Positions 19,973-52,293 of a stretch of 64,000 nucleotides of DNA are shown in pieces. The notes under the pieces were generated by a model. That model made no database searches. It had not been told where the DNA came from and saw only the letters and a program-made list of their open reading frames with translations. How positions within the stretch are numbered: the first letter of the stretch is position 1; each line of letters opens with the position of its first letter. The DNA comes from an uncultured bacterium. Its GTDB lineage: Bacteria > Armatimonadota > JACIXR01. The stretch is from NCBI GenBank assembly GCA_938041455.1, contig CALITO010000002.1, positions 81,396 to 145,395 of the forward strand. Reading direction: 5' to 3'. A program made the translations under genes and the position numbers.

Positions 19973-19988
19973 AGAAAGGAAAGTGAGT

Positions 19989-23520: not shown

Positions 23521-25014
23521 ATGCGCTTGACTAAACTGCTACATAATACGGAGATAGTAAAGAGCAGAGGCGATTTATCCCGGGAAATCAAGGGAATCTC
23601 CCACGATTCCCGTGAGATAAAGCCCGGTTATCTCTTCGTAGCCATCAGAGGTGAACAATTTGATGGACACGATTTTATTAATGAAGCAGTTGAAAAAGGG
23701 GCCTCCGCTTTAGTAGTAGAGGATGAAGCGAAATTACCACTTCTCGGACCCCCCTCCATCGTTGTTCGCTCCTCACGTAAAGCACTTGCCGAGCTAAGTG
23801 CCCGTTTCTACAACCACCCCTCTCGGAGGTTAAAACTAATAGGCGTCACCGGCACCAATGGCAAAGGACTTACCTGTCATTTCCTCTTCCATATTTTTCG
23901 AGCCTTTGGATATAAAGTAGCATACCTTGGTTCATTAGGAGCCTGGCTGGACCAAGAGCCCCTCACCTGGCCCAACAAGACAACACCCGAGGCACCACTC
24001 GTTCAAGAAACCCTTGCCAAAATCGCAGAGAAGAACGGTGATGTGGTTGTTATGGAGGTCTCATCCCACGCCATTGCTCAACATAGAAGTTGGAGTTGCG
24101 AGTTTGATATGTGCGTCTTTACTAATCTATCCCAGGACCACCTTGATTATCATAAGGACATCGAATCCTATTTCCAAACGAAACTGAAACTTTTCCTGGA
24201 TTATCCGCCCTGTTCCTCTAAATCCTTCACCTCCATCTTAAATGTAGACGACCCCTATGGAAAACGCATCCTAAAAGAAATAAGGACCCCTTTTATCACC
24301 TATGGCACCTCTAACGAGGCTTTCGTAAGAGGCTATATAGTTAGACAAGACTTCACCTCCCTGCTCTTCCATCTCATAACTCCCGCGGGGGAAACAGATG
24401 TTCGTCTTCCTCTCGGTGGATTATTCAATTTCCCCAATGCCCTTGCGGCAGCCGCTACCGCCTTCGCCCAGCAGATACCTTTAGAAACGATTAAGCAAGG
24501 GTTAGAGTCAACTACTCCCTTACCGGGAAGATTTGAAAACCTTAACGAGGGACAAGATTTCCCGGTCATAGTGGATTATGCTCACACACCTCAGGGGATA
24601 GAGGAGCTCTTGATATCCATAAGCCCTTTATGCAAAGGGAGAAAAATCATTGTTTTCGGATGCGGAGGCGATAGAGACAGAAGTAAGCGGCCCCTGATGG
24701 GTAGAATCGCCGCTGAACTCTCTGATGTGGCGATAATCACATCCGATAATCCCCGTAGTGAAAAACCGGGAAAAATCATAGAGGAAATACTCTCTGGTAT
24801 ACGGGAAGAAAATAGGTCAAAAGTTATAGTAGAAGAGGACAGAGAAAAGGCGATATCTTTAGCGATCCGGATTGCCAAGAGAAACGATTGCTTGCTTATA
24901 GCAGGAAAGGGCCACGAGACCTATCAAATATTCGCCGATAGGGTCATCCACTTTGATGACCGAGAGGTGGCAAAGAGACTTATAAAGGAGAGGCTAAATG
25001 CAACTCCCTCTTAA
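23521..25014 (+). CDS. murE: UDP-N-acetylmuramyl-tripeptide synthetase, DAP-type motif
   Basis: SRE(I)KPGYLFVAIRG, GVTGTNGKGLTCHF, DYAHTPQGIEELL, TSDNPRSEKP. Confidence 0.95.
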   Translation: MRLTKLLHNTEIVKSRGDLSREIKGISHDSREIKPGYLFVAIRGEQFDGHDFINEAVEKGASALVVEDEAKLPLLGPPSIVVRSSRKALAELSARFYNHPSRRLKLIGVTGTNGKGLTCHFLFHIFRAFGYKVAYLGSLGAWLDQEPLTWPNKTTPEAPLVQETLAKIAEKNGDVVVMEVSSHAIAQHRSWSCEFDMCVFTNLSQDHLDYHKDIESYFQTKLKLFLDYPPCSSKSFTSILNVDDPYGKRILKEIRTPFITYGTSNEAFVRGYIVRQDFTSLLFHLITPAGETDVRLPLGGLFNFPNALAAAATAFAQQIPLETIKQGLESTTPLPGRFENLNEGQDFPVIVDYAHTPQGIEELLISISPLCKGRKIIVFGCGGDRDRSKRPLMGRIAAELSDVAIITSDNPRSEKPGKIIEEILSGIREENRSKVIVEEDREKAISLAIRIAKRNDCLLIAGKGHETYQIFADRVIHFDDREVAKRLIKERLNATPS

Positions 25015-26365
25015 GGAAGTCTGCTTGGCTTTAGGTAAAGAGGAATGCCCCTCTGATTTGGTAATCAGGGGAGTCTCCACCGATAGCCGTATACCTCAGA
25101 AGGATTGTCTTTTCTTTGCCATTAAGGGAGAAAAATTCGACGGGCACGATTTCCTATGGCCTGCATACGAAAATGGCTGTCTTGCAGCAGTAGTCCACTC
25201 TCCGCCACCTTCTCCCCCTCCAATTCCCCTCATAGAAGTGGAGGATACACTTAAGGCACTGGGTATACTGGCAAGTTATTACAGAAGTAAATTTTCTCCC
25301 ATCTGCCTTGGAGTAACAGGTAGCACAGGGAAAACCACTACAAAGGAAATGCTCGCCCACCTCCTTGGAGCAAGGTACCAGGTTCTCAAAACAGAGAAAA
25401 ACTATAATACAGAAATAGGGGTGCCATTGACACTTTTCCGATTGAAAGGGACACACTCCGCGTTAGTGGTGGAGATGGCAACGAGAGGAAAGGGACAAAT
25501 CGCCTGGCTTGCCCATATAGTTAAGCCGAAAATAGGGATAATAACCAACATTGGACCAGCTCACTTGGAATTCTTCAAGAGCATAGAAGAGATAGCGGAG
25601 GCAAAGGCAGAACTACTCAAAGCTCTACCACCTGATGGTGTCGCAATTCTAAACGCTGATGACCACTTCTTTTCCTTCTTAAAGAAACGAGCCAATTGTC
25701 AAGTCCTTTCCTTTGGGATGTCGCCCCAGGCAGATATATCCTGCGAGATTATGGGAGGGAATAAGCCTTTGTCTCTCAAGTTAAAAACCCCAAAGGGCGA
25801 AAGTATCGTTGAAGCTCCCTTTAAGGGTGAACACGATGTCCTAAATCTTCTGGCTGCGGTAGCAGGCGCCTTCTCTGCGGGCCTTTCCTTAGAGGAAATA
25901 GAGGGACGAATCCCCACCTTATCCCGCCCCCCTATGCGAATGGAATTACACGAACTTACACCTGGTCTCCTGCTCATAAACGACGCCTATAATTCTAATC
26001 CGTCTTCTTTGAGAGCAGCTCTTCGATTCCTGAAAGGGCAAGAGGGACGAAAAATTGCCGTGCTTGGCGATATGTTGGAATTAGGAAAGGATAGCAAAAA
26101 AATCCACTTTGAGGCGGGTAGATGGGTAAAGGATGCAGGAGTGGATTTTCTAATAACTATAGGGGAATATGCCCAGTTTATGGGAGAAGGAGCAAGGGAA
26201 AGTGGCTTACCTCCTGAGAAAATCGCTTCCTTCCCTAATAAAGAAGAAGCCCTGCCTTTCCTGTTGGAGCTTGTGAGAGAGGGAGATGTGATTTTAGTAA
26301 AGGCTTCACGGAAATTGGCATTGGATAAAATCGTGGAGGAATTGATAAAATGCCATTCCTCTTAA
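24998..26365 (+). CDS. murF: UDP-MurNAc-tripeptide:D-Ala-D-Ala ligase
   Basis: GVTGSTGKTTTKEML, NDAYNSNPSSLRAAL, AVLGDMLELG. Confidence 0.95.
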   Translation: MQLPLKEVCLALGKEECPSDLVIRGVSTDSRIPQKDCLFFAIKGEKFDGHDFLWPAYENGCLAAVVHSPPPSPPPIPLIEVEDTLKALGILASYYRSKFSPICLGVTGSTGKTTTKEMLAHLLGARYQVLKTEKNYNTEIGVPLTLFRLKGTHSALVVEMATRGKGQIAWLAHIVKPKIGIITNIGPAHLEFFKSIEEIAEAKAELLKALPPDGVAILNADDHFFSFLKKRANCQVLSFGMSPQADISCEIMGGNKPLSLKLKTPKGESIVEAPFKGEHDVLNLLAAVAGAFSAGLSLEEIEGRIPTLSRPPMRMELHELTPGLLLINDAYNSNPSSLRAALRFLKGQEGRKIAVLGDMLELGKDSKKIHFEAGRWVKDAGVDFLITIGEYAQFMGEGARESGLPPEKIASFPNKEEALPFLLELVREGDVILVKASRKLALDKIVEELIKCHSS

Positions 26366-27294
26366 AATCCTCCCTTCTGGCCTTTGCCATTTCTTGTTTG
26401 CTCTCTTACCTTTTGATTCATTTCTTCAGGGGGATGGGCGTGGGACAGAGGATAAGCATGGATGCTCCAGAGAGACACCGCAAAAAGGAGAACACCCCTA
26501 CTATGGGAGGAATAGCCATCGTCATATCAACCTGCCTCGCTTATATTCTGATGGGGGGTAAGAATTCCTTGCTTCCTCTTTCCCTTTTGGGCTTCGCCTT
26601 AATAGGCTTTATAGACGATTTTCTAAGCATAAGGAGGGGCAAATCGCTGGGCTTAAAGGCACGCCACAAACTCCTATTTCAAGCGATGTTCTCCCTCCTT
26701 TTACTATTCTCCCTGAAAGACTTCTCCACTATAATCTATTTTCCGGGTCCCCTGAGGTATTGGGATTTGGGCTATTTCTTCTATCCCCTTTTCGCCCTCC
26801 TTTTACTCGTCGGATTCTCCAATGGGGTGAATTTAACCGATGGATTAGACGGGCTCGCTGGAGGGTGTTCAGCCATAGTCGCCGCGGGGATGGCTATGGT
26901 GGCTCTCTCTCTTGCTGAACAAGATAACAGCCTTTTCTTGGCTGGTTTGAGTGGAGCTTGTCTCGGCTTTCTCTGGTTTAACCTGTATCCCGCCAAGCTA
27001 ATTATGGGTGATACGGGCTCCCTAGCCTTAGGTGGTTCCCTTGCTTTTTCATCCATTCTCCTTAAGACGGAAATCGTCTTCATCTTTATGGGACTGGTAT
27101 TCCTTGCTGAGACGGCTTCCGTTATTATCCAGGTCATTTCCTTCAAGACCAGTGGAAAGCGAGTCTTCAAAATGACTCCCCTTCACCACCACTTCGAACT
27201 ATCTGGTTGGGAAGAACCGCTTATAACAACCCGTTTCTGGCTAGCCACGCTTGTAATAACACTCATCGGTTACTGGCTAGCCCTTCTGAGGTGA
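26350..27294 (+). CDS. mraY: Phospho-N-acetylmuramoyl-pentapeptide transferase
   Basis: KKENTPTMGGIAI, LTDGLDGLAGG, MTPLHHHFELSGW. Confidence 0.96.
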   Translation: MPFLLKSSLLAFAISCLLSYLLIHFFRGMGVGQRISMDAPERHRKKENTPTMGGIAIVISTCLAYILMGGKNSLLPLSLLGFALIGFIDDFLSIRRGKSLGLKARHKLLFQAMFSLLLLFSLKDFSTIIYFPGPLRYWDLGYFFYPLFALLLLVGFSNGVNLTDGLDGLAGGCSAIVAAGMAMVALSLAEQDNSLFLAGLSGACLGFLWFNLYPAKLIMGDTGSLALGGSLAFSSILLKTEIVFIFMGLVFLAETASVIIQVISFKTSGKRVFKMTPLHHHFELSGWEEPLITTRFWLATLVITLIGYWLALLR

Positions 27295-27299
27295 AGGTA

Positions 27300-28649
27300 A
27301 TGTTCAAGGGGAAGAAAATCAACATAATAGGCTTAGGAAACACAGGGATAGCAGCTGCGGAGGTTTTGGCCCCCGCAAATGAGGTGGCTATTTTTGACCG
27401 CAAGGAGGTCCCCATCCCACCCCAACTGGAGAATTTACCTCTCAAATTTCATTTAGGTGACCCTTTATATCAGGGGGCGGAAGAGGCCGATTTGATAATC
27501 ATAAGCCCGGGTGTTCCACCAACGGAACCATTCGTAGAAAGAGCAATAGCCTCAAAAGTTCCCATAAGAAGCGAAATAGAAATAGCCTATCAACTTTGTC
27601 CTGCCCCCATCGTTGCCGTGACAGGCACTGATGGTAAAACCACCACAACTTCCCTCATAACTCATATTTTGAACAGGGCAGGAAAGCGAGCGATAGCGGC
27701 GGGCAACATCGGCAATCCTTTTATAAAAGTGGTGCCTACCCTCTCTCCTAAAGACATAGTAGTGTTGGAGGTATCTAGTTTCCAACTCGAATGGATAGAA
27801 TTTTTCCGTCCCCATATCGGCATTCTATTGAATATATCAACGGACCATTTGGAGCGTTATCCATCCCTAAAGGAATATGGAAAAACCAAGATGCGACTGT
27901 TCCAAAATCAAAACGAGATGGATTTCGCTATCCTCAACGGAGACGATCCCCTCGTTTGTAGCCTCTCCAAGGATTTGCCCTCCCATCGCCTTTTCTTCTC
28001 CCTTTATTCCCCGGTTGAGGAAGGAGCCTTTACCAAGGGGGAGAAAATCTATATAAAAATTAAAGGAAACGAAATTTCAATTCCCCTCTTCCCTACCCGC
28101 TTAGAGGGATTGCATAACCTACAAAATATCCTTGCTTCTTTCCTCGCAGCTTTTCTTCTCCATGTTCCACCTGATGAAATCTCTCAAGCGGTATCAACAT
28201 TCCAACCATTGGAGCACCGTATGGAAAAGGTAGGGTATATAAATGGTGTGCTTTTTGTGAACGACTCCAAAGCAACAAATCCCCACGCCGCCTCCAAAGC
28301 CCTCGCTTCCTTCTCTTCGCCCATTGTCCTAATAGCAGGAGGAAGATTGAAAGAAGGAGCAGATTATGAAATGCTCTTCAGAAGATATAAACATAAACTC
28401 AAAGCGACGGTCTTAATCGGTGAAGCAACCCCTTTGCTTGAGAAAATAGCGAGAAAAGCAGGGATAAAATCGGTTTACAAAGGAAGGGATTTGAGGGAAG
28501 CAGTGAAGCAAGCTTTCCGCCTTTCCTCGCCGGGGGACACTGTTCTATTTTCACCCGCTTGCTCTAGTTTCGATATGTTCGCAAATTTTGAGGAAAGGGG
28601 CAAACGTTTTAAGGAAATCGTCCAAAGCTTCTGGGAGGGAGGAAAATAA
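27300..28649 (+). CDS. murD: UDP-N-acetylmuramoylalanine--D-glutamate ligase (start corrected from 27207)
   Basis: MFKGKKINIIGLGNTGIAAAEVL, VTGTDGKTTTTSLI; ATG 27300 follows mraY stop. Confidence 0.95.
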   Translation: MFKGKKINIIGLGNTGIAAAEVLAPANEVAIFDRKEVPIPPQLENLPLKFHLGDPLYQGAEEADLIIISPGVPPTEPFVERAIASKVPIRSEIEIAYQLCPAPIVAVTGTDGKTTTTSLITHILNRAGKRAIAAGNIGNPFIKVVPTLSPKDIVVLEVSSFQLEWIEFFRPHIGILLNISTDHLERYPSLKEYGKTKMRLFQNQNEMDFAILNGDDPLVCSLSKDLPSHRLFFSLYSPVEEGAFTKGEKIYIKIKGNEISIPLFPTRLEGLHNLQNILASFLAAFLLHVPPDEISQAVSTFQPLEHRMEKVGYINGVLFVNDSKATNPHAASKALASFSSPIVLIAGGRLKEGADYEMLFRRYKHKLKATVLIGEATPLLEKIARKAGIKSVYKGRDLREAVKQAFRLSSPGDTVLFSPACSSFDMFANFEERGKRFKEIVQSFWEGGK

Positions 28650-29731
28650 TGAGCAGGTTGTTAAGGACCATAGAAACGAAAGCGAGATTTATCATATCCT
28701 TCTGTGTTATATGGCTCATGGTATGCGGGACAATATTTGTTATCAGCTCAGCGAAATATCCCTCGGGCAGGAGTCCATTCTCACAGCTTGTCTTTTTACT
28801 CGTAGGGCTGTTCGCTTTTTTAGCAACCTCCTCCATTAATTACGAGAAGCTCGCTTCCTACTCATGGCTTCTTTATTTTCTCGCTTTGTTCCTCCTCATA
28901 GCGACGATTATCCGGGGGCGCCTCAGATGGATCCACATAGCGGGTCCTTTCGAGTTACAACCCTACGAATTTGCCAAGATAGCGGTAGTAATTTTTCTCG
29001 CTACATTATTAGCCAAGCAAAGAAATCTCCATAATTTTGGGAAGACGGCTCTGTTCCCTCTACTTGCTCTCCTGCCCTTTATTGCCCTTTTGATTTGCCA
29101 ACCTCACTTCGGCGCTTGCGTCCTTCTATTCACAACCTTCCTTGTTATGCTTTTTCTCAGAGGGGTTAAGATTTCCCACATACTCTGCGTCCTGGGAATA
29201 GGTTTACTTCTACTTTCTATCCTCCTTGTCTCAAATCCTAACCGGCGTCAACGCATAACCTCCCTATTTGAGAACGACCCTTTGGGTAAAAGTTATCAAA
29301 AGAACCAAGCATTAGTCGCAATTGGCTCTGGCGGTCCATGGGGTAAAGGCCTAGGAAACAGTATTATGAAGTTGGGTTTTCTGCCGGAAGCACACACCGA
29401 TTTCCTTTTCGCCATTGTCGCAGAGGAATTGGGGTTTTTCCTGACCTGCGTCTTCGTTTTAATGCCCTTTGGACTTTTTCTTCTCTCCTCCTATATTGTG
29501 AGTTTCTCAGCCCTATCGCTCTTAGGAGTTATATTAGGGGGAGGGCTGGCATCATTATTCGCGATTCAGTTCTTCATAAATTTGACCATGGTTTCCACCC
29601 CCTATTTCCCCGTGGTAGGACTTCCCCTACCCTTTTTTGCTTACGGGGGTTCCTCCCTTATTAGTTCCTGCCTTGCTGCGGGCATACTCAATAATATAGC
29701 GAGAGCCAGGGAGGTGAAAAATCGCCAATAA
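28649..29731 (+). CDS. ftsW: Peptidoglycan glycosyltransferase FtsW (SEDS family)
   Basis: SEDS topology, LRWIHIAGPFELQPYEFAKI, LPEAHTDFLFAIVAEELGF, PLPFFAYGGSSLI. Confidence 0.94.
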   Translation: MSRLLRTIETKARFIISFCVIWLMVCGTIFVISSAKYPSGRSPFSQLVFLLVGLFAFLATSSINYEKLASYSWLLYFLALFLLIATIIRGRLRWIHIAGPFELQPYEFAKIAVVIFLATLLAKQRNLHNFGKTALFPLLALLPFIALLICQPHFGACVLLFTTFLVMLFLRGVKISHILCVLGIGLLLLSILLVSNPNRRQRITSLFENDPLGKSYQKNQALVAIGSGGPWGKGLGNSIMKLGFLPEAHTDFLFAIVAEELGFFLTCVFVLMPFGLFLLSSYIVSFSALSLLGVILGGGLASLFAIQFFINLTMVSTPYFPVVGLPLPFFAYGGSSLISSCLAAGILNNIARAREVKNRQ

Positions 29732-29736
29732 AGAGG

Positions 29737-30825
29737 ATGAGCCAGAAGCGGGTGTTATTCGCTGCGGGAGGAACAGGAGGACATATTTTCCCCGCGCTCG
29801 CGATAGCCGAGGTTCTACAGCGAGAGAAAAAAGCAGAAGTTTTGTTTATAGGCGGGAAGGATATGGAGCTCTCCCTCATCGCCCCCCATTACCCCTTGAT
29901 GATGCTTCCTGTAATGCCTATGAAACGCTTTCCCTCTCTTATTTGCAAACCGCTTCTTGCTTTTCTTAAGAGCATCATCTTATCCCTCCTCTTCCTTTTC
30001 AAAGAACATCCTTCCGTTGTAGTGGGTATGGGAGGCTACCCCTCCCTCCCCCCTTTGCTGGCTGCTGCCTTCTTAAGAATTCCCATCGTCATCCACGAGC
30101 AAAACATCATTCCGGGAAGGGTCAATAAATTGCTCGCTTATTTTGCTAAGAAGATACTAATATCATTCCCTGAAACGGCAAGCTTCTTCCCTCCCTCCCG
30201 CACCAAGTTGGTCGGTTTACCTATTCGCTCCTCCTTGAGAAAAATAGACAAGACAATAGCACGCCAGAAATTGAAGCTCACCCCTTCAGCACCAACAATT
30301 TTAATAAGCGGAGGGAGTAGAGGTGCCCTTTCCCTTAATAAGGCAATAGTAGAAATTCTCCCCTTACTTCTTAAGGAGGGGATACAAGTAATGCATATTT
30401 GCGGCCTGGCGCACTACCAGCAATTTAAGGAGAGCACCCAGAATATTGATGACCGCTATCTTCTCTTACCTTTCACCTCGGAGATGCATCTTTTTTATTC
30501 CGCTGCTGACTTGTGCATTAGCAGGGCTGGCGCCTCCACATTGGCGGAGCTATCTTTCTTCGCTTTACCTTCTATTCTTATTCCTTATCCTTATGCTATT
30601 GCTCAGCACCAGTTTTTGAACGCCTTGCTTTTTCAGAAGAGGGGAGCAAGTCGTGTCCTCTTAAACGAGGCACTGGGGGAGCCCAGAAAGCTTTACGAGG
30701 AGATTTCTCACCTTCTTTCTTCACCCCAGCAATTAGAGAAGATGTCAGCGTCCGCCCGTTCCCTTTACCTACCAGGAGCATCCTTAGAAGCAGCAAATGA
30801 AATTGAGGAGGTGATAAGAAGATGA
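29737..30825 (+). CDS. murG: UDP-GlcNAc--undecaprenyl-PP-MurNAc-pentapeptide GlcNAc transferase
   Basis: VLFAAGGTGGHIFPALAIAEVL, HEQNIIPGRVNKLL, CISRAGASTLAEL. Confidence 0.96.
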   Translation: MSQKRVLFAAGGTGGHIFPALAIAEVLQREKKAEVLFIGGKDMELSLIAPHYPLMMLPVMPMKRFPSLICKPLLAFLKSIILSLLFLFKEHPSVVVGMGGYPSLPPLLAAAFLRIPIVIHEQNIIPGRVNKLLAYFAKKILISFPETASFFPPSRTKLVGLPIRSSLRKIDKTIARQKLKLTPSAPTILISGGSRGALSLNKAIVEILPLLLKEGIQVMHICGLAHYQQFKESTQNIDDRYLLLPFTSEMHLFYSAADLCISRAGASTLAELSFFALPSILIPYPYAIAQHQFLNALLFQKRGASRVLLNEALGEPRKLYEEISHLLSSPQQLEKMSASARSLYLPGASLEAANEIEEVIRR

Positions 30826-32180
30826 GGATACATTTTATAGGCATAGGAGGGGCTGGAATGAGTGCTTTAGCCACCATCTGCTTAGCGATGGGGCACGAGG
30901 TCACCGGTTCAGATATCTTGGAGAACGAAGCTATCCGCCGCCTTCGCTCAATGGGTGCCCGTATATACATCAACCATTCGCCACATAATATATCAGGTGC
31001 CGAGCTCGTTGTTTATTCCTCGGCTATAAACCCAGAAAATGTTGAACTCCTATCCGCTGAGGAGAAAGGATTGCCAATATTGAAAAGAGGTGAACTACTC
31101 GCTAAATTGATGGAAGGAAAAAGGAGCATAGTGGTAGCTGGCACCCACGGGAAGACGACCACTTCCTCCCTTATATCCTTTATGCTAGAGAGAAATTCCT
31201 TGGACCCAACGATTATCATTGGGGGAGAGGTTAACGATATCGGGGGAAATGCTAAACTGGGGAAGGGAGAACTTTTTGTCGCAGAGACAGACGAAAGCGA
31301 CGGTTCCTTTCTCCTCCTTTCCCCCTGGATAGCAGTGTTAACCAATATAGATTCAGACCACTTAGACTTCTATGGGTCTATGGCTGATTTGGTGAAAGCT
31401 TTCTTAAATTTCTCCTCCCATGTAAGAGAGGATGGTTATATCATTGCTTGTTTTGACGACTCTTGGCTCCGCCAAATGAAGTTTCCTCGCCCTACTCTCT
31501 CTTACGGCCTTTCCGAAGGGGCAGAGATGAGAGCAAATAACATCAGGGTATCCTCAACAGGAACATCCTGCAATGTTTATAAAGGTAATAAGGAACTTTT
31601 TGACCTTAATTTAAAACTGCTGGGAAGAGAAAATGTCTCTAACGCTCTTGCTGCTATAGCAGTGGGGAGAATCCTAGGTCTTCCTCCAGAAGGAATTAAG
31701 GCATCCCTTGAAAGTTTCATAGGGGTGCATAGAAGATTGGAGAGGATAGGTTCCTTCGATGATATCCTCGTCTATGACGATTACGCTCATCATCCAACGG
31801 AGATATCCGTGACTTTGAGAACCTTAAGAGAAGCTTTCCCCAACCGCAGACTTGTCTGTGCCTTTCAACCCCACAGATATACCCGAACGAAACTGCTTTA
31901 CAGGGAAATAGCAGAAGCCCTAAAAGCAGCGGATATCCTCCTTATAACCGACATTTACTCCGCGGGAGAAAAACCTATAATGAATGTTTCCAGCCAGCTC
32001 ATCCTAAACGCTTTAAAGGAAAAGGGTAAGGAAGCCATATATGTAGAAGAGTTGGAGGCAGTCTCGAACCACCTTTTGAAGTTGTCTAAGCCAGGTGACA
32101 TAATCATCACGCTTGGAGCAGGTAATATAAATTATGCAGGTTATGAGGTCCTGAAAAGAGCGGGAGTATGCCCAACCTGA
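30822..32180 (+). CDS. murC: UDP-N-acetylmuramate--L-alanine ligase
   Basis: IHFIGIGGAGMSALA, VAGTHGKTTTSSLI, DDYAHHPTEI. Confidence 0.97.
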   Translation: MRIHFIGIGGAGMSALATICLAMGHEVTGSDILENEAIRRLRSMGARIYINHSPHNISGAELVVYSSAINPENVELLSAEEKGLPILKRGELLAKLMEGKRSIVVAGTHGKTTTSSLISFMLERNSLDPTIIIGGEVNDIGGNAKLGKGELFVAETDESDGSFLLLSPWIAVLTNIDSDHLDFYGSMADLVKAFLNFSSHVREDGYIIACFDDSWLRQMKFPRPTLSYGLSEGAEMRANNIRVSSTGTSCNVYKGNKELFDLNLKLLGRENVSNALAAIAVGRILGLPPEGIKASLESFIGVHRRLERIGSFDDILVYDDYAHHPTEISVTLRTLREAFPNRRLVCAFQPHRYTRTKLLYREIAEALKAADILLITDIYSAGEKPIMNVSSQLILNALKEKGKEAIYVEELEAVSNHLLKLSKPGDIIITLGAGNINYAGYEVLKRAGVCPT

Positions 32181-33055
32181 AGTTATTGGAGAAGATGGTA
32201 AAGGGAAAAATTCTCTACGGGGAACCCATGGCCCGTCATACATCCTTCCGAATAGGAGGAAAGGCTGAAGCGCTCTTCTTCCCTAGCGACGAATCCGATC
32301 TCATCACCTTCCTCTCCATACTAAGAAAGGAAAATAAGCCCTATTATTTACTAGGTAATGGGACGAACATTCTCGTCTCAGATAAGGGATTGAAAGAAGT
32401 AGTGATAAAGGTTGGTAAGCATCTCACGGGCTTCTTTCCCCAAGAGGGGAGAGTTATGAGTGGAACCCCGCTTCCCAGGTTTTTAAACAACATTTCTCGC
32501 TTGGGCCTCGCGGGACTAGAGAATTTAGCGGGCATACCGGGTACCGTAGGTGGAGCCATAAGGATGAACGCGGGCATACCCTTATTTTCTATCGGAGAAG
32601 CTCTTAAAGCGGTGAAGGTATTTTATGAGGGAGAAGTTGTATGGCTAAAAAGAGAGGAGGTCACCTTCTCCTACAGAGAAACCTCCCTCGGAGAAGCAGT
32701 CATTTTGGAGGCTATTTTTAACTTGACTCCTGATTCTCCTTACCGGATAAGGGAACGGTTCCAAAATGCCCTCCTCAGAAGGAGAAAATCCCAACCTATT
32801 AAAGCTTATAGTGCAGGGTGCATTTTCAAAAACCCTCCTTTTGCAAGCGCAGGTGAACTGTTGGACAAAGCAGGAGCAAAGGGAATGAGGCAGGGCGGCG
32901 CCTATGTCTCGCGTAAGCATGCTAATTTTATCATCAATAGGGGAGACGCCACCGCAGAAGATGTCTTCCTCCTCATTCAAAGATGCAAAGAACTAGTAAA
33001 AGAGAAGTTCAACATAGAACTACAGTTGGAAATCCAACTTTGGGGGGAGTTCTGA
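32168..33055 (+). CDS. murB: UDP-N-acetylenolpyruvoylglucosamine reductase
   Basis: MARHTSFRIGGKAEALFFP, LGNGTNILVSDKGL, AGIPGTVGGAIRMNAG, YSAGCIFKNP. Confidence 0.96.
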   Translation: MPNLKLLEKMVKGKILYGEPMARHTSFRIGGKAEALFFPSDESDLITFLSILRKENKPYYLLGNGTNILVSDKGLKEVVIKVGKHLTGFFPQEGRVMSGTPLPRFLNNISRLGLAGLENLAGIPGTVGGAIRMNAGIPLFSIGEALKAVKVFYEGEVVWLKREEVTFSYRETSLGEAVILEAIFNLTPDSPYRIRERFQNALLRRRKSQPIKAYSAGCIFKNPPFASAGELLDKAGAKGMRQGGAYVSRKHANFIINRGDATAEDVFLLIQRCKELVKEKFNIELQLEIQLWGEF

Positions 33056-33056
33056 T

Positions 33057-33992
33057 ATGAACAAGACAAGAGTAGCTATCCTGGCTGGTGGCATATCCTC
33101 CGAACGAGAAATCTCCCTCCTTAGCGGAGAAATGGTGCTTAAAAATTGCCCGAGGGACAAATATATTCCTTTCTTGCTTGATCCTAAGGACCTACTGGAA
33201 AAGGAAAAATGGAGCGATTTTATAAGGGAACTTAAAAGCGCCGATGTGATCTTCATAGCGCTCCATGGGAGAATGGGAGAGGATGGCGTTATTCAGGGTT
33301 TGCTGGAAAGTCTTGGCATACCCTATACAGGATCGAGCGTCCTTGCCTCCGCCTTAGCAATGGATAAAGTAAAATCAAAACAGATTTTCTACTTTTACAA
33401 TATCCCTACCCCTCCCTGGAGACTATTAGAAAAGTCAAAACCTATTCCTCCTTTAACCTATCCTCTGGTCATAAAACCGCAAAGGCAAGGTTCCTCCGTA
33501 GGAGTAACGATAGTGCTCTCAGAGGAAGAATTACCCCACGCTTTAAATAAAGCCTTTCAATATGACCCCCTAGCCATTGCAGAAAATTATATAAAGGGCA
33601 GGGAACTATCCGTGCCCATCTTAGAGATAGACGATGTCCCTACCACTCTGCCTGTTGTGGAGATAATCCCAAATGAAGGCTTTTACGACTATTATCATAA
33701 ATATACCCCGGGCTCTACAAGGGAAATCGCCCCCGCCCCCTTGAAAAAAGAAACTGAAAAAAAGGTGAAAGAGGTGGCTTTAGCAGCTTATAAAGCATTG
33801 GGCTGCGCGAATTTCGCCAGGGTAGACCTTAAACTTGACGAAGAAGAAAACCCCTTCGTTTTAGAAGTCAACACTATTCCCGGTTTGACCCCTCTCAGCC
33901 TCCTCCCCCTCTCTGCCCAAGCTATGGGTATCTCCTTTTCTCAATTGATAGATATCATTATTCAAAACGCTCTGAGGAAAAGTAGAATATGA
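33057..33992 (+). CDS. ddl: D-alanine--D-alanine ligase
   Basis: VAILAGGISSEREISLLSG, LHGRMGEDGVIQGLLESLGIPYTGSSVLASALAMDK, EVNTIPGLTPLSLLP. Confidence 0.96.
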   Translation: MNKTRVAILAGGISSEREISLLSGEMVLKNCPRDKYIPFLLDPKDLLEKEKWSDFIRELKSADVIFIALHGRMGEDGVIQGLLESLGIPYTGSSVLASALAMDKVKSKQIFYFYNIPTPPWRLLEKSKPIPPLTYPLVIKPQRQGSSVGVTIVLSEEELPHALNKAFQYDPLAIAENYIKGRELSVPILEIDDVPTTLPVVEIIPNEGFYDYYHKYTPGSTREIAPAPLKKETEKKVKEVALAAYKALGCANFARVDLKLDEEENPFVLEVNTIPGLTPLSLLPLSAQAMGISFSQLIDIIIQNALRKSRI

Positions 33993-34729
33993 AGAGATGG
34001 GAACACCGCTCCCCACCGAGGAAAAGAATCTACTTTAGTTCTTTTCTTTCTTTATGTATCTTGTTAATATTCTGGTATCTCCTGCCCCTCTTTCTTTTCC
34101 CCCTGCAAAATCTCGCTATCTTCGGCAATTCCCATATCCCCCAGGAAATGCTCTCCGAGCAACTCCTCCACTACCTCAAGGGCAAACCCCTCTTACAAAT
34201 TAGTCAAAAGTGTATCTCCTCCCTTCTGCGAGAAAATAATTGGGTTAAAAAAGCGGAGATATACAAGATACCCCCTCGCGTCCTCCTCCTAAAGGTTAAA
34301 GAAAAAACACCCTTCCTAATTATTTTCCCACAGAATAGGGAACCTTTATTGATAGATGAAGAGGGCTATGTAATTGAAAACCCCACTCAAATGAAGGGGC
34401 TACCAACCTTGTTTCTCACCTCTGTGAATATTAGCGAAAATAACATCCTTTCCCATCCTTCCCTTGAGAGTATAGAAGCGCTTAGGGAGCTTCTCAACCA
34501 ATTGAGCGAAACATCCATACAAGTTGAAAGGATTCTCCTTTCACCCGAGGGGGAAATAAGTGTCTTTACAAGAGGAGGAGTAGAGATTATAATAGGGGAA
34601 CCTCGGGAACTTTCCACAAAACTCGCCCTTCTCAGGGTTTTGTGGGAGAAGATACCTAATATAGAGAAGAGGCTTCTCTATATAAACTTGTCTTACCCTC
34701 CTAAACCTGCTATAATGATAAAGGAGTGA
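33989..34729 (+). CDS. ftsQ: FtsQ/DivIB-type POTRA cell division protein
   Basis: TM then POTRA: LQNLAIFGNSHIPQEMLSEQLLHYLKGKPLLQI...WVKKAEIYKIPPRVLLLKVKEKTP. Confidence 0.85.
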   Translation: MKRWEHRSPPRKRIYFSSFLSLCILLIFWYLLPLFLFPLQNLAIFGNSHIPQEMLSEQLLHYLKGKPLLQISQKCISSLLRENNWVKKAEIYKIPPRVLLLKVKEKTPFLIIFPQNREPLLIDEEGYVIENPTQMKGLPTLFLTSVNISENNILSHPSLESIEALRELLNQLSETSIQVERILLSPEGEISVFTRGGVEIIIGEPRELSTKLALLRVLWEKIPNIEKRLLYINLSYPPKPAIMIKE

Positions 34730-35448
34730 AAAAGGAGCTCATCTTATCCCTCTCTATCGTCTCTATAATGCTGGGGGCTCTTCTCGCTCTGGGTATAAGA
34801 ACCCAGCAGACCTATACCCCTATCTTGCCCACCACTAATCCCCGTGAGTTATCAGCTATATTTAAGACTTTGCAGGAGACGAACAAAAAACTTCAGGAAG
34901 AAATCAGGATCTTACAAAATAGGATAACAGATTATGAGGAGAAATTATCCAGTGGAAAAGGGGCTATCCAAGCCCTTAATGAACAACTTCAAACCATAAA
35001 GGTTCAAGCAGGGCTCACCGATGTTATGGGCCCGGGCGTCATTATCACGCTCGCTGATAGTGGTTACCGAGCTCCCTTAGCGGAACTACAAAATCTCTAT
35101 ATAGTCCATGATTATGACCTTCTCCAAGTGATTAATGAGTTAAAGGCTGCAGGGGCAGAAGCAATAGCCCTAAACGGACAACGGCTCTCGTTCTACTCTG
35201 CCATTCGCTGTGTAGGTAATGTAATACAAGTGAACGGTGTCCCCATAGCATCACCCTATAAGATAGAGGCGATAGGAGACCCCGATGTCCTCCTTAGTGG
35301 GTTGAAGCTACCTGGGGGCATAGTGGATTTGCTGACTAATTCAGGGCTTAAGGTGGAAGTTAAAAAAGCGGAGCAGCTCGTTTTACCCCCTTATAGTGGT
35401 CCGGGAAGTAGTAGATTGGGTTTTGCCCAGCCAGTGGGAGGTCCCTGA
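34726..35448 (+). CDS. DUF881 family protein
   Basis: TM + coiled coil + GPGVIITLADSG...LLQVINELKAAGAEAIALNGQRL typical DUF881. Confidence 0.88.
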   Translation: MKKELILSLSIVSIMLGALLALGIRTQQTYTPILPTTNPRELSAIFKTLQETNKKLQEEIRILQNRITDYEEKLSSGKGAIQALNEQLQTIKVQAGLTDVMGPGVIITLADSGYRAPLAELQNLYIVHDYDLLQVINELKAAGAEAIALNGQRLSFYSAIRCVGNVIQVNGVPIASPYKIEAIGDPDVLLSGLKLPGGIVDLLTNSGLKVEVKKAEQLVLPPYSGPGSSRLGFAQPVGGP

Positions 35449-35450
35449 GA

Positions 35451-35822
35451 GTGCTCCTTTTACTTCCCGCTTTTGGTTTGTTGGTCAGCTTCCTAATAGT
35501 GTATTTCACCCATATAACTGTGCCCCTTATTTATGCACCTTACCTTTCCGTTGCTATACTTGCTGCCTTTGACTCAATAGTAGGAGGAGTTAGAGCGGGT
35601 TTGGAGAGGAAATTCGATAACTCCATCTTCCTTTCCGGTTTCTTCGTGAACACCGCAGCGGCTGCTCTATTAGCCTGGATAGGAGACCTTGTAGGGGTAG
35701 CACTCTATCTTGCCGCGGTAGTTGCCTTTGGGGTAAGGATTTTTCAAAATTTATCCCTTATAAGACGACTCCTGCTTCAAGAGATTACCTATAGGAGGGA
35801 TAAGTCTGGGGGAGAGAGATAG
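35451..35822 (+). CDS. sbp: Small basic protein (DUF1290 family)
   Basis: Four TM, YAPYLSVAILAAFDSIVGGVRAGLERKFDNSIFLSGFFVN. Confidence 0.92.
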   Translation: MLLLLPAFGLLVSFLIVYFTHITVPLIYAPYLSVAILAAFDSIVGGVRAGLERKFDNSIFLSGFFVNTAAAALLAWIGDLVGVALYLAAVVAFGVRIFQNLSLIRRLLLQEITYRRDKSGGER

Positions 35823-37050
35823 AGACATCATCACGGGATTAGATGTAGGAACAACGAAGATATGTGTTCTCGTGGTTAGGGTAGTAAATGGAGAACTACA
35901 AACGATGGCTCTGGGGCTTCATCCCTCTGAGGGCATGCGTAAGGGGCTTGTCGTGGATATACAAAAGACGAGCGCCGACATAAGGTCAGCTATATTGAAG
36001 GCGCAAACTATGGCGGGGAGGGAAATAACCCAAGCGGTAGTTGGCGTGACGGGTAGGCATATCTCTTCCCATAATGTGAGGGGAGCAGCAACTATCACGA
36101 ATTATAAGGGAGAGATTAAAGAAGAGGATGTGGAAAGGGCTCTCGAGAATGCAAGGGAAAACCTCCTCCTCTCTAAAGAGAGGGAGATCATCCACATCGC
36201 GCCACGGCAATTCATAATAGACGGAGAGGAAGGGATCAGACAGCCGGAAGGGATGTTCGCTCAACACTTGGAGGTGGAGGCCCACATAGTGACTGGAGCT
36301 TCCTCCTTCCTTAACAATTTAGTGAAAAGCGTGGAGCTCGCTGGCGTGAGAGTGGAGGATCTTTTGCTCCAGTCCCTAGCTGCAAGCGAGGCGGTCCTGG
36401 AGGAGGCGGAAAAGGATATCGGGGTCGCCCTTGTGGATATAGGGGGTGGCACAACGGACCTCGCCATATTTAAAGATGGAAGTATATGCTTCTCCTCTTC
36501 TCTTCCCTTGGGAGGAAATCATTTGACCTCGGATATAATGGTGGGGCTACGCACGACCTCGAGCGAAGCGGAAAGACTTAAGAAAGAGAAAGGTTACGCC
36601 ATAGCTTCCCTACTAGATTCCCAGGAGGCGATAGAGGTGAGAATGGTGGCAAGGGAAGAGCCGATGTATCTCCCACGGCGTGTTCTTGCCGAGATAATAG
36701 AAGATCGTCTTACAGAGCTCTTCCAAATAGTGGGTAAGGAAATAGCCAAAGCGAATGTGGGAGACATACTGCCTGGAGGAGTAGTCCTCACGGGGGGCAC
36801 CTCCCTTTTACCCGGAATAGATCACCTTGCTGAAAAGGTGTTGAATATGCCGGCACGCATCGGCTTGCCCAAAGGGGTTAAAAGCCTTCCTGAATCCCCC
36901 TTCTCCCCTCTCCATTCCACGGCGGTGGGCTTGGTACTCTATTCTTATAAATACCACCCCCTCCCTATTAAAAGGTCTTTTAAAAGGAAAAATTTTGTTG
37001 CAAGGTTTTTCCATTCCCTCTATAATTTTCTTGCCCACTTTTGGAGATAA
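35806..37050 (+). CDS. ftsA: Cell division protein FtsA; start proposed at CTG 35806 rather than track GTG 35872
   Basis: Upstream in-frame LGERDRDIITGLDVGTTKICVLVV restores actin-fold phosphate-1 motif; AGGAGG at 35793-35798; C-terminal amphipathic helix NFVARFFHSLYNFLAHFWR. Confidence 0.92.
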   Translation: MGERDRDIITGLDVGTTKICVLVVRVVNGELQTMALGLHPSEGMRKGLVVDIQKTSADIRSAILKAQTMAGREITQAVVGVTGRHISSHNVRGAATITNYKGEIKEEDVERALENARENLLLSKEREIIHIAPRQFIIDGEEGIRQPEGMFAQHLEVEAHIVTGASSFLNNLVKSVELAGVRVEDLLLQSLAASEAVLEEAEKDIGVALVDIGGGTTDLAIFKDGSICFSSSLPLGGNHLTSDIMVGLRTTSSEAERLKKEKGYAIASLLDSQEAIEVRMVAREEPMYLPRRVLAEIIEDRLTELFQIVGKEIAKANVGDILPGGVVLTGGTSLLPGIDHLAEKVLNMPARIGLPKGVKSLPESPFSPLHSTAVGLVLYSYKYHPLPIKRSFKRKNFVARFFHSLYNFLAHFWR

Positions 37051-37090
37051 CTTTCGTTAATTTTAAAAATAATGAAAAGGGGGTATTGAA

Positions 37091-38170
37091 TTGCCCAACA
37101 AAGAGGATATAAAAGGAGCAAACATAACCGTGCTCGGCGTTGGCGGCGCGGGATGTAACGCTGTCAACCGAATGATTGAAGCACAGGTAGAGGGTGTAGA
37201 GTTTGTTGCAGTGAATACCGATAAGCAAGTTTTGGGCTTGTCGAAGGCACCTCACAAGATACAGATAGGGGCGAAGCTCACGGGAGGATTAGGAGCAGGT
37301 GGCGACCCCGAAATTGGCAAGCAGGCTGCAGAGGATAGCGAAGAGGAACTGAGAAAAGCAATGGAGGGGGCCCATATGGTATTCATAACCGCGGGAATGG
37401 GGGGAGGGACTGGCACAGGGGCCTCACCCATTATAGCCGAGATCGCTCGCTCTAAGGATATTGGAGCCCTTTGTATTGCTGTTGTCACCCGCCCTTTCTC
37501 TTTCGAAGGCACTAAACGGGCAAAGATAGCGGAGGAAGGAATCCAATTACTCAAAGAGAAGGTAGACGCCCTAATAGTCATCCCTAATGACCGCCTACTT
37601 AACATCACAGAGGAAAACCTTACCCTCGTGGAAGCTTTTAAGTTAGCCGACGATGTATTGCGTCAAGGGGTGCAAGGTATCTCAGATATAATAGTGGTCC
37701 CCGGGTTAATAAATTTGGATTTCGCCGATGTGAAATCCGTCCTCCAGGGGGCGGGTACCGCCTTAATGGGAACTGGCGTTGCCGAGGGAGAAAACAGAGG
37801 AGTAGAAGCAGCTACGGCAGCAATCCAAAGCCCTCTTTTGGAAAGCTCTATGAGCGGAGCGAAGAAATTGCTCGTTAACATAACTGCTGGACACGACATC
37901 TCCTTAAAGAACGATGTGGAGAAGGCAATGGCTTTTCTCTCTCAACGAATGGATGCTAAGGAAGACGATATAAAGCTTGGTGTCGTCATAAAGGACGAAA
38001 TGCAAGGAAAATTGCAAATAACTGTTATAGCTACAGGTTTCCAGCCCCAGCCTATGGAGCAACCACCCTTTTTGAGAAAGGAAGAAGGAGTAGAGGAGAA
38101 AAAAGTAGAAATCCCTATACTTATAGAGGAGGAACTTGACATACCTACCTTCCTTCGCAAAAGATTTTAG
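37091..38170 (+). CDS. ftsZ: Cell division protein FtsZ
   Basis: TTG start; [26 protein letters not shown]-terminal [11 protein letters not shown]. Confidence 0.98.
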
Positions 38171-49098: not shown

Positions 49099-49126
49099 TT
49101 GTCAAAATTCTATTTTAGATTAAAAT
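49099..49126 (+). promoter_or_regulatory. Candidate mtaB promoter TTGTCA-N16-TAAAAT
   Basis: -35 49099-49104, -10 49121-49126; GGAGG before ATG 49154. Confidence 0.5.
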
Positions 49127-49153: not shown

Positions 49154-50524
49154 ATGAATAATCGTATGGCCTATGAAAACTGGCAAGAGATGATTTTTGG
49201 TACTGCCAAATATCCTATTAGATGCGGTTTCTCCTTGGAAATAGGGGGTGGCGAGGTAATCCCAGAAATAAAGCCCCATCCTCGCCCTGGAACGGAGGGA
49301 GACTTGAGAACGCTTCTTGAGGAGTATGGGCGTATGACGAAGGATATAATGGAGAGGGCGATAAATCTGGGCCTTCCCTCATTAATGCTGGAGATAGAGC
49401 ATGTAGCCCAACTCACCCTTAATCCAAACTGGGGGGAAGAGGTAACAAAGCATTGTAAAGAGATTTTATATCAATTTCATCAAAAATATGGCATAAAATG
49501 TGCCCTTCGCTCTACTATCGCGGATATAAGAAGAAGTGAGCATAATTTGAGAGAAAGCAGGGAAACAGAGCTCCTCTTAGAGGGGTTTGAAAGATGTGCC
49601 CGAGCAGGAGCAGATGTGCTTTCTATAGAATCCATCGGTGGTAAAGAAGTTTTTAATTACGCGATTACTAGACAAGATATTATAGGAGTTCTTTTTGCCA
49701 TCGGGGTTTTGGGGTGCAAGGATATGGAATTCCTCTGGGATAATATCGTTGCGATAGCCAGTTCTCACAACTCTATACCCGGGGGAGATACCGATTGTGC
49801 CCAGGCCAACACGGCGATGATGCTGGCGGGAGGAATTGCAGGAGGCGATTTTCCCCACACTATTGCTTCCCTCATACGAGCAATGGCTGGAGCCCGCTCC
49901 CTCGTTGCAGTGGAGAGGGGAGCGATAGGACCCCTCAAGGATTGTGGCTACGAAAACCCCATAATAAAGGCTATAACAGGTGTTCCCATCTCTATGGAAG
50001 GTAAAACATCGGCCTGTGCCCATATGGACCTAATGGGCAATCTTTCCGCCGCAGTGTGCGACCTTTGGAGCAATGAAGCAGTAGAGTATAGAGAGATGTT
50101 CGGGGGCTCCAGTGTTGCTGTTTTCACTGAGATTCTCGGCTACGACGCCTCCCTTATGAACGCAGCAATTCTATCAGGCGCAGCTCAATGTCTTAGGGAT
50201 TTACTAGTAGCCTCTGACAAATATAGAGACCCTCAAGCCCTTGTTATCGCCCCTGATATAGCCTGGGAAATAGGTAAAGCGATAGCAGAAACACAAGGAT
50301 ATTATTCGCGAGCGAAAGCAGCCTCCCTTAAAGCAGGGGAGATAATTAAGAGAGAAGTAAAAGAGGGGAATTTAGTATTATCCCGAAAAGAATTAACCGC
50401 CCTGGACAATGCCCTCTCCGAGCTTTCCTCCCTCACGGATGACGAGGAGAAATTCACTGCGGAGATGGTTAAAAAATACCAAGAACTCGTAGAAGAGTTC
50501 CTGCCCTCTTCCTACGGGCTATAG
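49154..50524 (+). CDS. mtaB: Methanol:corrinoid methyltransferase
   Basis: MAYENWQEMIFGTAKYPIRCGFSLEIGGGEVIPE; GIKCALRSTIADIR; GGDTDCAQANTAMMLAGG; CGYENPIIKAITGVPISMEGKTSACAHMDLMGNLSAAVCDLWSNEAVEY; ends FLPSSYGL. Confidence 0.95.
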   Translation: MNNRMAYENWQEMIFGTAKYPIRCGFSLEIGGGEVIPEIKPHPRPGTEGDLRTLLEEYGRMTKDIMERAINLGLPSLMLEIEHVAQLTLNPNWGEEVTKHCKEILYQFHQKYGIKCALRSTIADIRRSEHNLRESRETELLLEGFERCARAGADVLSIESIGGKEVFNYAITRQDIIGVLFAIGVLGCKDMEFLWDNIVAIASSHNSIPGGDTDCAQANTAMMLAGGIAGGDFPHTIASLIRAMAGARSLVAVERGAIGPLKDCGYENPIIKAITGVPISMEGKTSACAHMDLMGNLSAAVCDLWSNEAVEYREMFGGSSVAVFTEILGYDASLMNAAILSGAAQCLRDLLVASDKYRDPQALVIAPDIAWEIGKAIAETQGYYSRAKAASLKAGEIIKREVKEGNLVLSRKELTALDNALSELSSLTDDEEKFTAEMVKKYQELVEEFLPSSYGL

Positions 50525-50541
50525 AAAGGAGGTATTTAGTA

Positions 50542-52293
50542 ATGTCCATCCGAAAGAAGGTCCTTTCCGCTATTTTGAAACAGAAAACTGATTCCTACCT
50601 CTGCTTATCTGCTAATCCTACCCCTACTTTTGAACAAATGAAGGAAGTCAACAGCTACTTCCCTCTTGCTCACAAAGAACCCGAGAAGATGGCTACCCTT
50701 GCATTAGCAGGACATAAGTTGGTGGGTTTTGACGCGGTAAGAATCCCCTTTTGCCAGACCATCGAGGCTGAAGCCCTCGGTTGCGAAGTTTTTATAGGAA
50801 ATGACAATATGCCTGTGGTTATCTCCCATCCCTATCATATAGGGGAAAAACCTTCCTTTCCCGATGATTTCCTTGAAAGAGGCAGAATTCCTACCCTTTT
50901 AGAAGCGATTAGCCTTATCAAAAGCGAGACAAAAGGCACACCTCTCATAGTGGGAATTGTGGGTCCTTTTACACTAACGGGTTATCTTTTGGGAACGACC
51001 AATCTCCTTATGCAGATGGCTATATCGCCAGAACAAGTCCTCCCTTATATGGAAATCGCCTTGATGGCAGAGGAAACGCTTGCTAGGGCGATAGAAGAAA
51101 GAGGTGCGGATATCATATGCGTGGAGGATATGGCAGCCTCAACCGATATGATAAGCCCAGAGATGTATAGGAAATTTGTGTTACCATCTCAGAAGAAATT
51201 GTTCGCCTCCCTATCGCTCCCCTCTATTCTTCATATCTGCGGAAATGTCACTCCTATAATAGAGGATATGGCGGATAGCGGAGCCGATGCCTTAAGTATA
51301 GATGATAGGACAGATCTCCTGAAGGCAAGACAGTTTACGATAGGTAAAACCTCCTTGCTCGGCAATATAAATCCCTCCTCTATACTCCTCCAAGGAGATG
51401 AAGAAAAAGTTCGGGAAGCGGTAAGAAGAGCAATAGGGGAGGGAATAGATATAGTGGCACCTGGCTGCGCCGTCCCCCTTGGGGCACCGCTCTCCAACCT
51501 CCGCGCTATGGTGGATGAAGCCCACAAGATAAAACCGAGGGAAACGCTGGGGGTAATCCCTTCCTCTGTTCGTCCTTTCAAAATATATGGGATAAGCGAA
51601 ACAGAAGAGGCAAGAGAATCTGTAGAAGAGGTTTCTCCCTTTCCTGAAATAAGAAAGGCGGTTCTGAGAGGAGATAAGGAGAGCTGCTCCCGAGCCACGG
51701 AGGAAGCACTCGCTTATGCAACTCCTGAGGAAGTTATGGAGAAAGGATTGGTTAAAGCTATGGAAGAGATAGGAAAACTGTGGGATGAAGGTTATTTCTT
51801 CTTGCCCCAGGTAATGCTTGCCGCCGACGCCCTTATGGAAGGAGTGAAGTTATGCGAGGAGAGAATGGAAGGGAAGTTACAAAAGAAGGGCAAAGTGGTT
51901 CTCTTTGTAGCAAAAGGAGACATTCATACAATTGGTAAGAACATAGTGAAAACCTTGTTGTCCGCTGCGGGCTTTGAGGTTATAGACCTCGGAGTGGATG
52001 TGGATGATGATAAGGTAATCCAAGCAGTTAAGGAATACAAACCTATTATGTTGGGGGGCTCCGCCTTGATGACAACTACTATGTCTGCTTTCCCCCGCAT
52101 AGCGGAGAGATTATATAAGGAAGGAATAGAGGTCCCCTTCGCCTGCGGTGGCGGAGCAGTTAATGAAGAATTCTGCGATACATTCCCCCTTGGTATTTAT
52201 GGAGGAGAGGCAAAAAGAGCCCCGCTAATTGCCGAAGCAGCCGCAGAGGGTAAAAATTGGAAAGAAATAAAGGAAATGATGAAATACCTATAA
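50542..52293 (+). CDS. Fused MtaA-type methylcobamide methyltransferase (N-term) and MtaC-type corrinoid protein (C-term)
   Basis: N-term ILHICGNVTPIIEDMADSGADALSID and IVAPGCAVPLGAPL zinc ligands; C-term VAKGDIHTIGKNIVKTLLSAAGFEVIDLGVDV...PIMLGGSALMTTTMSAFPRIAERLYKEGIEVPFACGGGAVNEEF. Confidence 0.93.
   Translation: MSIRKKVLSAILKQKTDSYLCLSANPTPTFEQMKEVNSYFPLAHKEPEKMATLALAGHKLVGFDAVRIPFCQTIEAEALGCEVFIGNDNMPVVISHPYHIGEKPSFPDDFLERGRIPTLLEAISLIKSETKGTPLIVGIVGPFTLTGYLLGTTNLLMQMAISPEQVLPYMEIALMAEETLARAIEERGADIICVEDMAASTDMISPEMYRKFVLPSQKKLFASLSLPSILHICGNVTPIIEDMADSGADALSIDDRTDLLKARQFTIGKTSLLGNINPSSILLQGDEEKVREAVRRAIGEGIDIVAPGCAVPLGAPLSNLRAMVDEAHKIKPRETLGVIPSSVRPFKIYGISETEEARESVEEVSPFPEIRKAVLRGDKESCSRATEEALAYATPEEVMEKGLVKAMEEIGKLWDEGYFFLPQVMLAADALMEGVKLCEERMEGKLQKKGKVVLFVAKGDIHTIGKNIVKTLLSAAGFEVIDLGVDVDDDKVIQAVKEYKPIMLGGSALMTTTMSAFPRIAERLYKEGIEVPFACGGGAVNEEFCDTFPLGIYGGEAKRAPLIAEAAAEGKNWKEIKEMMKYL

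What the first reader, a model, noticed from the sequence alone, without database searches (positions are those of the whole stretch)
49154..52293. Two-gene methanol:corrinoid methyltransferase system: mtaB plus a fused MtaA-MtaC protein in a non-methanogen
49154-50524 matches MtaB end to end by eye. 50542-52293 combines an MtaA-type UroD domain with zinc ligands (LHICGN, GCAVPLGAP) and an MtaC-type corrinoid domain (GDIHTIGKNI, PIMLGGSALMTTTM, PFACGGGAVN). In methanogens and acetogens these are normally three proteins; the order resembles the fused chloromethane enzyme CmuA. It would let methanol-derived methyl groups pass from MtaB to a corrinoid tethered to the second methyltransferase. The final acceptor (THF or CoM) is unknown; no CoM genes are seen here.
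Basis: partly seen in the sequence, partly recalled or inferred. Interest (0 to 1): 0.72.

Follow-up and report, generated by a model that had tools for sequence, protein, structure and literature searches.

The report
Methanol methyltransferase with fused MtaA-MtaC
A bacterium of the Armatimonadota carries a two-gene version of the usual three-gene methanol-demethylating system, with the B12-carrying protein joined to the enzyme that passes its methyl group on, in a genus that lacks the marker enzymes of the two textbook destinations for that methyl group (acetate or methane).

Summary
49154-50524 is a full-length MtaB with all three zinc ligands. 50542-52293 is one open frame: an MtaA-type URO-D domain (Zn ligands H/C/C), a disordered linker, and an MtaC-type corrinoid domain with its axial His. 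The pair recurs in five Armatimonadota assemblies from two families, so it is no frame error. Both fused domains group with split bacterial MtaA/MtaC; AU tests reject joining them to CmuA. It is a separate fusion of CmuA-like layout. A RACo-type activase sits elsewhere in the genome beside a second corrinoid protein. The three genomes of the genus lack FTHFS, ACS (CdhC), MtrH and ComA, so neither acetogenesis nor CoM is a supported exit. Apart from other URO-D proteins, the only recognisable methyl-corrinoid partner is a MetH-like Hcy-Fol protein without cobalamin module, next to MetF. Best reading: an assimilatory route from methanol to methionine or the C1 pool; methanol as substrate and the acceptor are inferred. 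Fused URO-D/corrinoid proteins are known (CmuA, MtsD/F/H, an mtaA-mtaC fusion mentioned in Moorella), so this is a new variant of a known kind.

The parts
49099..49126 (+). promoter-like site TTGTCA-N16-TAAAAT upstream of mtaB
   Evidence: 10 of 12 matches; the region has 9 such sites against 5.4 expected, so weak
49154..50524 (+). mtaB, methanol:corrinoid methyltransferase (456 aa), GGAGG upstream
49628..49630 (+). MtaB E159, aligned with M. barkeri MtaB zinc ligand E164
   Evidence: ligand identity in M. barkeri from own knowledge
49796..49798 (+). MtaB C215, aligned with zinc ligand C220
49943..49945 (+). MtaB C264, aligned with zinc ligand C269
50542..52293 (+). mtaAC, fused MtaA-type methyltransferase and MtaC-type corrinoid protein (583 aa), AAGGAGG upstream, 17 bases after the mtaB stop
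50554..51528 (+). URO-D/MtaA domain, residues 5-329
51232..51240 (+). H231-x-C233, two of the three predicted zinc ligands (LHICG)
51466..51468 (+). C309, third predicted zinc ligand (PGC)
51547..51630 (+). interdomain linker, residues 336-363, predicted disordered and variable in length between the two families
51646..52161 (+). MtaC-type corrinoid domain, residues 369-540 (B12-binding_2 plus B12-binding; homology runs to about 579)
51925..51927 (+). H462, predicted lower axial cobalt ligand in GDIHTIG

Best explanation
A two-gene methanol:corrinoid methyltransferase system. MtaB (zinc enzyme) cleaves the C-O bond of methanol and methylates Co(I) held by the C-terminal domain of MtaAC. On a flexible linker the charged corrinoid domain swings back to the zinc site of the N-terminal MtaA-type domain of the same chain, which passes the methyl to an acceptor, most likely a thiol. 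A RACo-type activase encoded elsewhere resets Co(II). Since the genus lacks FTHFS, ACS, MtrH/CmuB and a CoM synthesis gene, the methyl probably enters assimilation: homocysteine to methionine, and/or the folate pool, involving the cobalamin-less Hcy-Fol MetH-like protein and MetF. Shown: architecture, conserved catalytic residues, recurrence, ancestry, absence of those marker families. Inferred: methanol as substrate, intramolecular transfer, acceptor, physiological role.
For: Family and structure matches. Zn ligands of MtaB (E159/C215/C264) and MtaA domain (H231/C233/C309) and H462 conserved in all five systems. Two-domain model (pLDDT 87.9, pTM 0.79) with a disordered linker at 336-363. Pair conserved in G000, G207, G208 and in another family, G056/G057. 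MtaB joins the split bacterial MtaB clade (support 100), the MtaC domain the split MtaC clade (100), the MtaA domain the split bacterial MtaA clade (98). In G000 this is the only MtaC-grade gene and the closest MtaA. One RACo activase, adjacent to a second corrinoid protein. FTHFS, CdhC, MtrH, ComA absent from all three genomes of the genus; pterin-binding proteins are only DHPS and the Hcy-Fol protein beside MetF. FTHFS also absent from G056/G057, but present in 8 of 10 genomes with unfused mtaA relatives.
Against: No biochemistry. NCBIfam equivalog cut-offs for MtaB/MtaA/MtaC are not reached. The Hcy-Fol protein may use only the separate MtgC-like corrinoid protein. The URO-D MtaA-type enzymes with known product methylate CoM; homocysteine as acceptor has no direct evidence. 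MetE was not searched for. Genomes are drafts (97% complete).
Confidence: 0.55

Rival explanations
1. Dissimilatory methanol use with THF as acceptor: the corrinoid domain is discharged by the Fol module of the Hcy-Fol protein (or by the MtaA domain) to give methyl-THF, which is oxidised by MetF/FolD for energy.
For: Fol module and MetF are encoded by adjacent genes; the Fol module matches methyl-THF:corrinoid methyltransferase PRK07535 over nearly its full length; CmuA/CmuB in M. extorquens feeds THF with MetF, FolD and PurU (PMC3621897).
Against: No FTHFS, CdhC or MtrH in three genomes; MetF sits with the homocysteine module, suggesting methionine synthesis; PRK07535 cut-off not reached (238 against 259 bits).
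Confidence: 0.2
2. Acceptor is coenzyme M or another dedicated thiol, as in methanogens, made by a route not recognised here.
For: The MtaA domain keeps the fold and zinc ligands of M. mazei MtaA.
Against: ComA absent from the genus (other CoM routes not tested).
Confidence: 0.12
3. The URO-D domain is a second donor-side enzyme (as in CmuA, where it demethylates chloromethane), so that MtaAC collects methyls from methanol through MtaB and from another substrate through its own URO-D domain, and a separate protein discharges it.
For: Same domain order as CmuA, in which the URO-D part is the donor-side enzyme (PMC13222342); 25 URO-D-family matches in the genome could supply separate acceptor enzymes.
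Against: The domain groups with MtaA, not CmuA; AU p=0.001 against joining them. The corrinoid motif of the CmuA orthologues is GNTQDIG, here GDIHTIG.
Confidence: 0.1
4. Sequencing or assembly frame error that joins two genes.
For: None.
Against: Same fusion in four other assemblies from two families.
Confidence: 0.01

Closest known systems
MtaABC methanol:CoM methyltransferase of Methanosarcina (2i2x, 4ay7)
   Same: All three parts present, with conserved zinc ligands and corrinoid His; folds match (MtaA TM 0.94 over the target; MtaC third).
   Different: MtaA and MtaC are one chain; bacterial; no CoM synthesis gene found.
Unfused mtaB-mtaC-(CobW-like)-(activase-like)-mtaA(URO-D) clusters of Bacillota and other bacteria (L055, L057, L064)
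   Same: Closest relatives of all three parts in trees.
   Different: Separate mtaA and mtaC, activase-like gene in the cluster (by eye); most of these genomes have FTHFS.
CmuA chloromethane methyltransferase/corrinoid protein (M. extorquens CM4, pCMU01)
   Same: URO-D domain followed by corrinoid domain in one chain of similar length.
   Different: 26% identity; its orthologues read here have GNTQDIG without axial His; donor-side enzyme that works with CmuB; no MtaB. Tree tests reject a common fused clade.
MtsD/MtsF/MtsH fused corrinoid/methyl transfer proteins of Methanosarcina acetivorans (PMC7374477, PMC10762971)
   Same: Corrinoid and MtaA/MtbA-type methyltransferase in one chain.
   Different: Act on methyl sulfides; corrinoid domain N-terminal (own knowledge, not tested here); archaeal.
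Moorella thermoacetica Mothe_c14370, described as 'mtaA and mtaC fused together' (PMC13391211)
   Same: Reported as a fused MtaA-MtaC gene.
   Different: Sequence not available here; listed as a solitary copy without mtaB. Possibly a CmuA relative, as all five intact fusions read from the 399-genome Bacillota survey were; this is inference.

Membership tests
MtaB methanol:corrinoid methyltransferase | Full-length PF12176 match and zinc ligands E/C/C | tested here: met
MtaB methanol:corrinoid methyltransferase | NCBIfam equivalog cut-off NF040651 (720 bits) | tested here: not met
   660 bits; name suggests a methanogen-based model
MtaB methanol:corrinoid methyltransferase | Methanol:Co(I) methyl transfer activity | not testable with these tools
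   needs assay
MtaA/CmuA family (URO-D methyltransferase) | TIGR01463 cut-off and Zn ligands H-x-C...C | tested here: met
   283 against 235 bits
MtaA methylcobamide:CoM methyltransferase (equivalog) | NF040654 cut-off (400 bits) | tested here: not met
   324.5 bits
MtaC corrinoid protein | Helical cap plus Rossmann B12 domains with DxHxxG | tested here: met
MtaC corrinoid protein | Equivalog cut-offs NF040655/NF040669 (420/450 bits) | tested here: not met
   233 and 252 bits; tree places it with split bacterial MtaC
CmuA chloromethane methyltransferase | Orthology with characterised CmuA | tested here: not met
   26% identity; AU tests p=0.001 and 4e-6 against a joint clade with CmuA orthologues
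CmuA chloromethane methyltransferase | URO-D then corrinoid domain in one chain | tested here: met
Acetogenic methanol pathway | FTHFS and ACS present in the genome | tested here: not met
   none in three genomes of the genus
CoM-dependent (methanogenic) methanol pathway | CoM synthesis (ComA) | tested here: not met
   Mcr not searched

The most novel reading that the evidence does not exclude
MtaAC is a methanol-dependent, folate-independent methionine synthase: MtaB charges the tethered corrinoid with methanol's methyl and the MtaA-type zinc domain puts it straight on homocysteine, so that methanol supplies methionine and SAM methyls in anaerobes without the Wood-Ljungdahl pathway.
Probability: 0.2. 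Interest if true: 0.7.

Novelty: new variant of a known kind. Interest (0 to 1): 0.4.

Why it matters
It shows the MtaABC machinery reduced to two polypeptides, with the carrier tethered to its own presumed discharging enzyme, in a lineage with no sign of the two usual destinations of the methyl group. If methanol feeds methionine or the C1 pool, anaerobic methanol use by MtaB is not confined to acetogens, sulfate reducers and methanogens. A two-gene system with a tethered carrier could also be convenient to engineer.

Tried and rejected
Frame error: rejected by recurrence in five assemblies. Direct descent from CmuA: rejected by tree tests. Fusion widespread: 292 Armatimonadota genomes gave only the genus and family f10; the genome-contig scan, limited to two N-terminal peptide patterns, gave only unfused relatives besides; from 399 genomes of the Bacillota survey, five intact fusions were read and all are CmuA orthologues. 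Rfam: only two tRNAs in the window, no cobalamin riboswitch. Single origin of the fusion: not shown, not rejected (MtaB p-AU 0.40; MtaC support 93; MtaA support 76). Conserved gene neighbourhood in the genus: none beyond the pair itself, so the downstream purH is taken as coincidence. Not searched: MetE, Mcr, FolD/PurU, corrinoid synthesis.

Full report
Observation. The two ORFs are at the stated coordinates. The first is MtaB from end to end. The second holds a URO-D domain (5-329), a linker, and the two corrinoid-protein domains (369-540), best matched by M. mazei MtaA and M. barkeri MtaC. An AlphaFold model built from 28 sequences (pLDDT 87.9, pTM 0.79) shows two well-predicted domains and a disordered linker at 336-363; Foldseek returns MtaA 4ay7/4ay8 first and MtaC 2i2x_B third. 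Residues aligned with the M. barkeri MtaB zinc ligands, with the M. mazei MtaA zinc ligands and with the corrinoid His are all present and invariant in five systems (ligand identities from own knowledge of the structures). Each gene has a GGAGG-type ribosome site, 17 bases separate them, and a promoter-like site lies upstream: a probable two-gene operon between nadA-like and purH-like genes (neighbours by eye).

Reality of the fusion. The window lies in a 2.2-Mb draft genome, 97% complete. The same single-frame fusion next to mtaB occurs in both other species of the genus (72-73% identity) and in two genomes of another family of the phylum (46-47%). Contig lengths identify G207 with JACIXQ010000019.1, G056 with JAKBZR010000020.1 and G057 with JAMCWF010000032.1, the last titled Armatimonadetes, hence the phylum Armatimonadota (inferred). 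Among 292 genomes of the phylum no other full-length single-frame fusion of this kind was found. In a scan of one genome per species, restricted by its two N-terminal peptide patterns, the other relatives have mtaA and mtaC apart. L053 has mtaA directly upstream of mtaC, 76 bases apart, which could resemble the state before fusion.

Ancestry. MtaB groups with split bacterial MtaB (support 100), the corrinoid domain with split MtaC (100), the URO-D domain with split bacterial MtaA (98). Five other URO-D/corrinoid fusions from the Bacillota survey form one tight family, of which one was measured at 67-69% identity to characterised CmuA; they have GNTQDIG instead of a DxH motif and sit beside MtrH-like and URO-D-like genes (neighbours assigned by eye). 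Trees joining them with the present fusion are rejected (AU p=0.001 for URO-D, 4e-6 for corrinoid). The fusion is therefore separate from CmuA. One or two origins within Armatimonadota cannot be decided.

Genome context. Only two proteins carry the B12-binding_2 domain in G000: the fusion, and a 213-aa MtgC-like protein next to a RACo-type activase. There are 25 URO-D matches; the next closest to MtaA (L002/L015) scores 143 bits on the MtaA model against 324.5 for the fusion. FTHFS, CdhC, MtrH and ComA are absent from all three genomes of the genus. The pterin-binding proteins are DHPS and a 576-aa Hcy-Fol protein that matches MetH 3-589 and stops before the cobalamin module; the MtgC-like protein matches MetH 649-848, and MetF is adjacent to Hcy-Fol. 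FTHFS is also missing in G056/G057 (G057 only 64% complete) but present in 8 of 10 genomes with unfused relatives. In G056 the pair sits with three URO-D proteins, a corrinoid protein, a RACo-like protein, a DUF1638 protein and 2-oxoacid:ferredoxin oxidoreductase genes.

Mechanism. Charging by MtaB, tethered movement, discharge at the MtaA-type zinc site and reactivation by RACo follow from the established chemistry of these families; none is shown here. Literature: in Eubacterium limosum MtaA is described as a methylcobalamin:THF methyltransferase and is needed for growth on methanol (PMC10223405); Moorella MtaA1 is 29.7 kDa (PMC13391211); bacterial MtaA were analysed with AcsE and MetH (PMC13222342). 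From this I infer that acetogen MtaA is a pterin-type enzyme, so the URO-D type cannot be assumed to methylate THF. With zinc chemistry suited to a thiol, no ComA and a MetH-like protein lacking its own cobalamin module, homocysteine/methionine and the folate pool are the likeliest destinations. In two of eleven other MtaB-like loci of the phylum a homocysteine-methyltransferase-like gene lies nearby (L164, L165, by eye), which is weak support.

Comparison with the known. CmuA, MtsD/F/H and a fused gene mentioned in Moorella (PMC13391211) show that joining these domains is not new. I found no report of MtaB with a fused MtaA-MtaC, and no paper in the held library that names both mtaB and this phylum; most subscription journals are not in that library. 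New variant of a known kind.

Noticed in passing
L106:530-3120 (G000:C8 near 78028) and L014:8671-11311 (G000:C8 near 17670-20310): Possible distributed methionine synthase: Hcy-Fol protein without cobalamin module beside MetF; a separate MtgC-like corrinoid protein beside a RACo activase and an acetate-kinase-like gene.
   Followed up: partly
L127:5376-7223, L128:6129-7976, L129:5933-7783, L130:5588-7438, L131:5003-6886: CmuA orthologues (67-69% identity to characterised CmuA, measured for L129) with MtrH-like and URO-D-like neighbours in genomes of the Bacillota survey; suggests chloromethane use in such bacteria.
   Followed up: partly
L137-L172, 42 Armatimonadota genomes: A divergent MtaB-like clade (37-48% identity, zinc ligands kept in all 25 aligned) that often sits with separate corrinoid proteins, URO-D proteins, DUF1638 and sometimes a homocysteine-methyltransferase-like gene; substrate unknown.
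   Followed up: partly
G000, 25 places; window 8539-9534 is one: 25 URO-D-family matches in a 2.2-Mb genome, most only distantly like MtaA or HemE.
   Followed up: no
L048:3472-17232: Cluster with mtaB-mtaAC, three URO-D proteins, corrinoid protein, RACo-like protein, DUF1638 and 2-oxoacid:ferredoxin oxidoreductase genes; resembles the mlp gene clusters of PMC10418091.
   Followed up: partly
L053:4947-6825: mtaA directly upstream of mtaC (76 bases apart) in an FTHFS-bearing genome; possible pre-fusion order.
   Followed up: partly
window 19983-38170: Cell-division and peptidoglycan gene cluster, mraZ-like to ftsZ-like, by eye.
   Followed up: no
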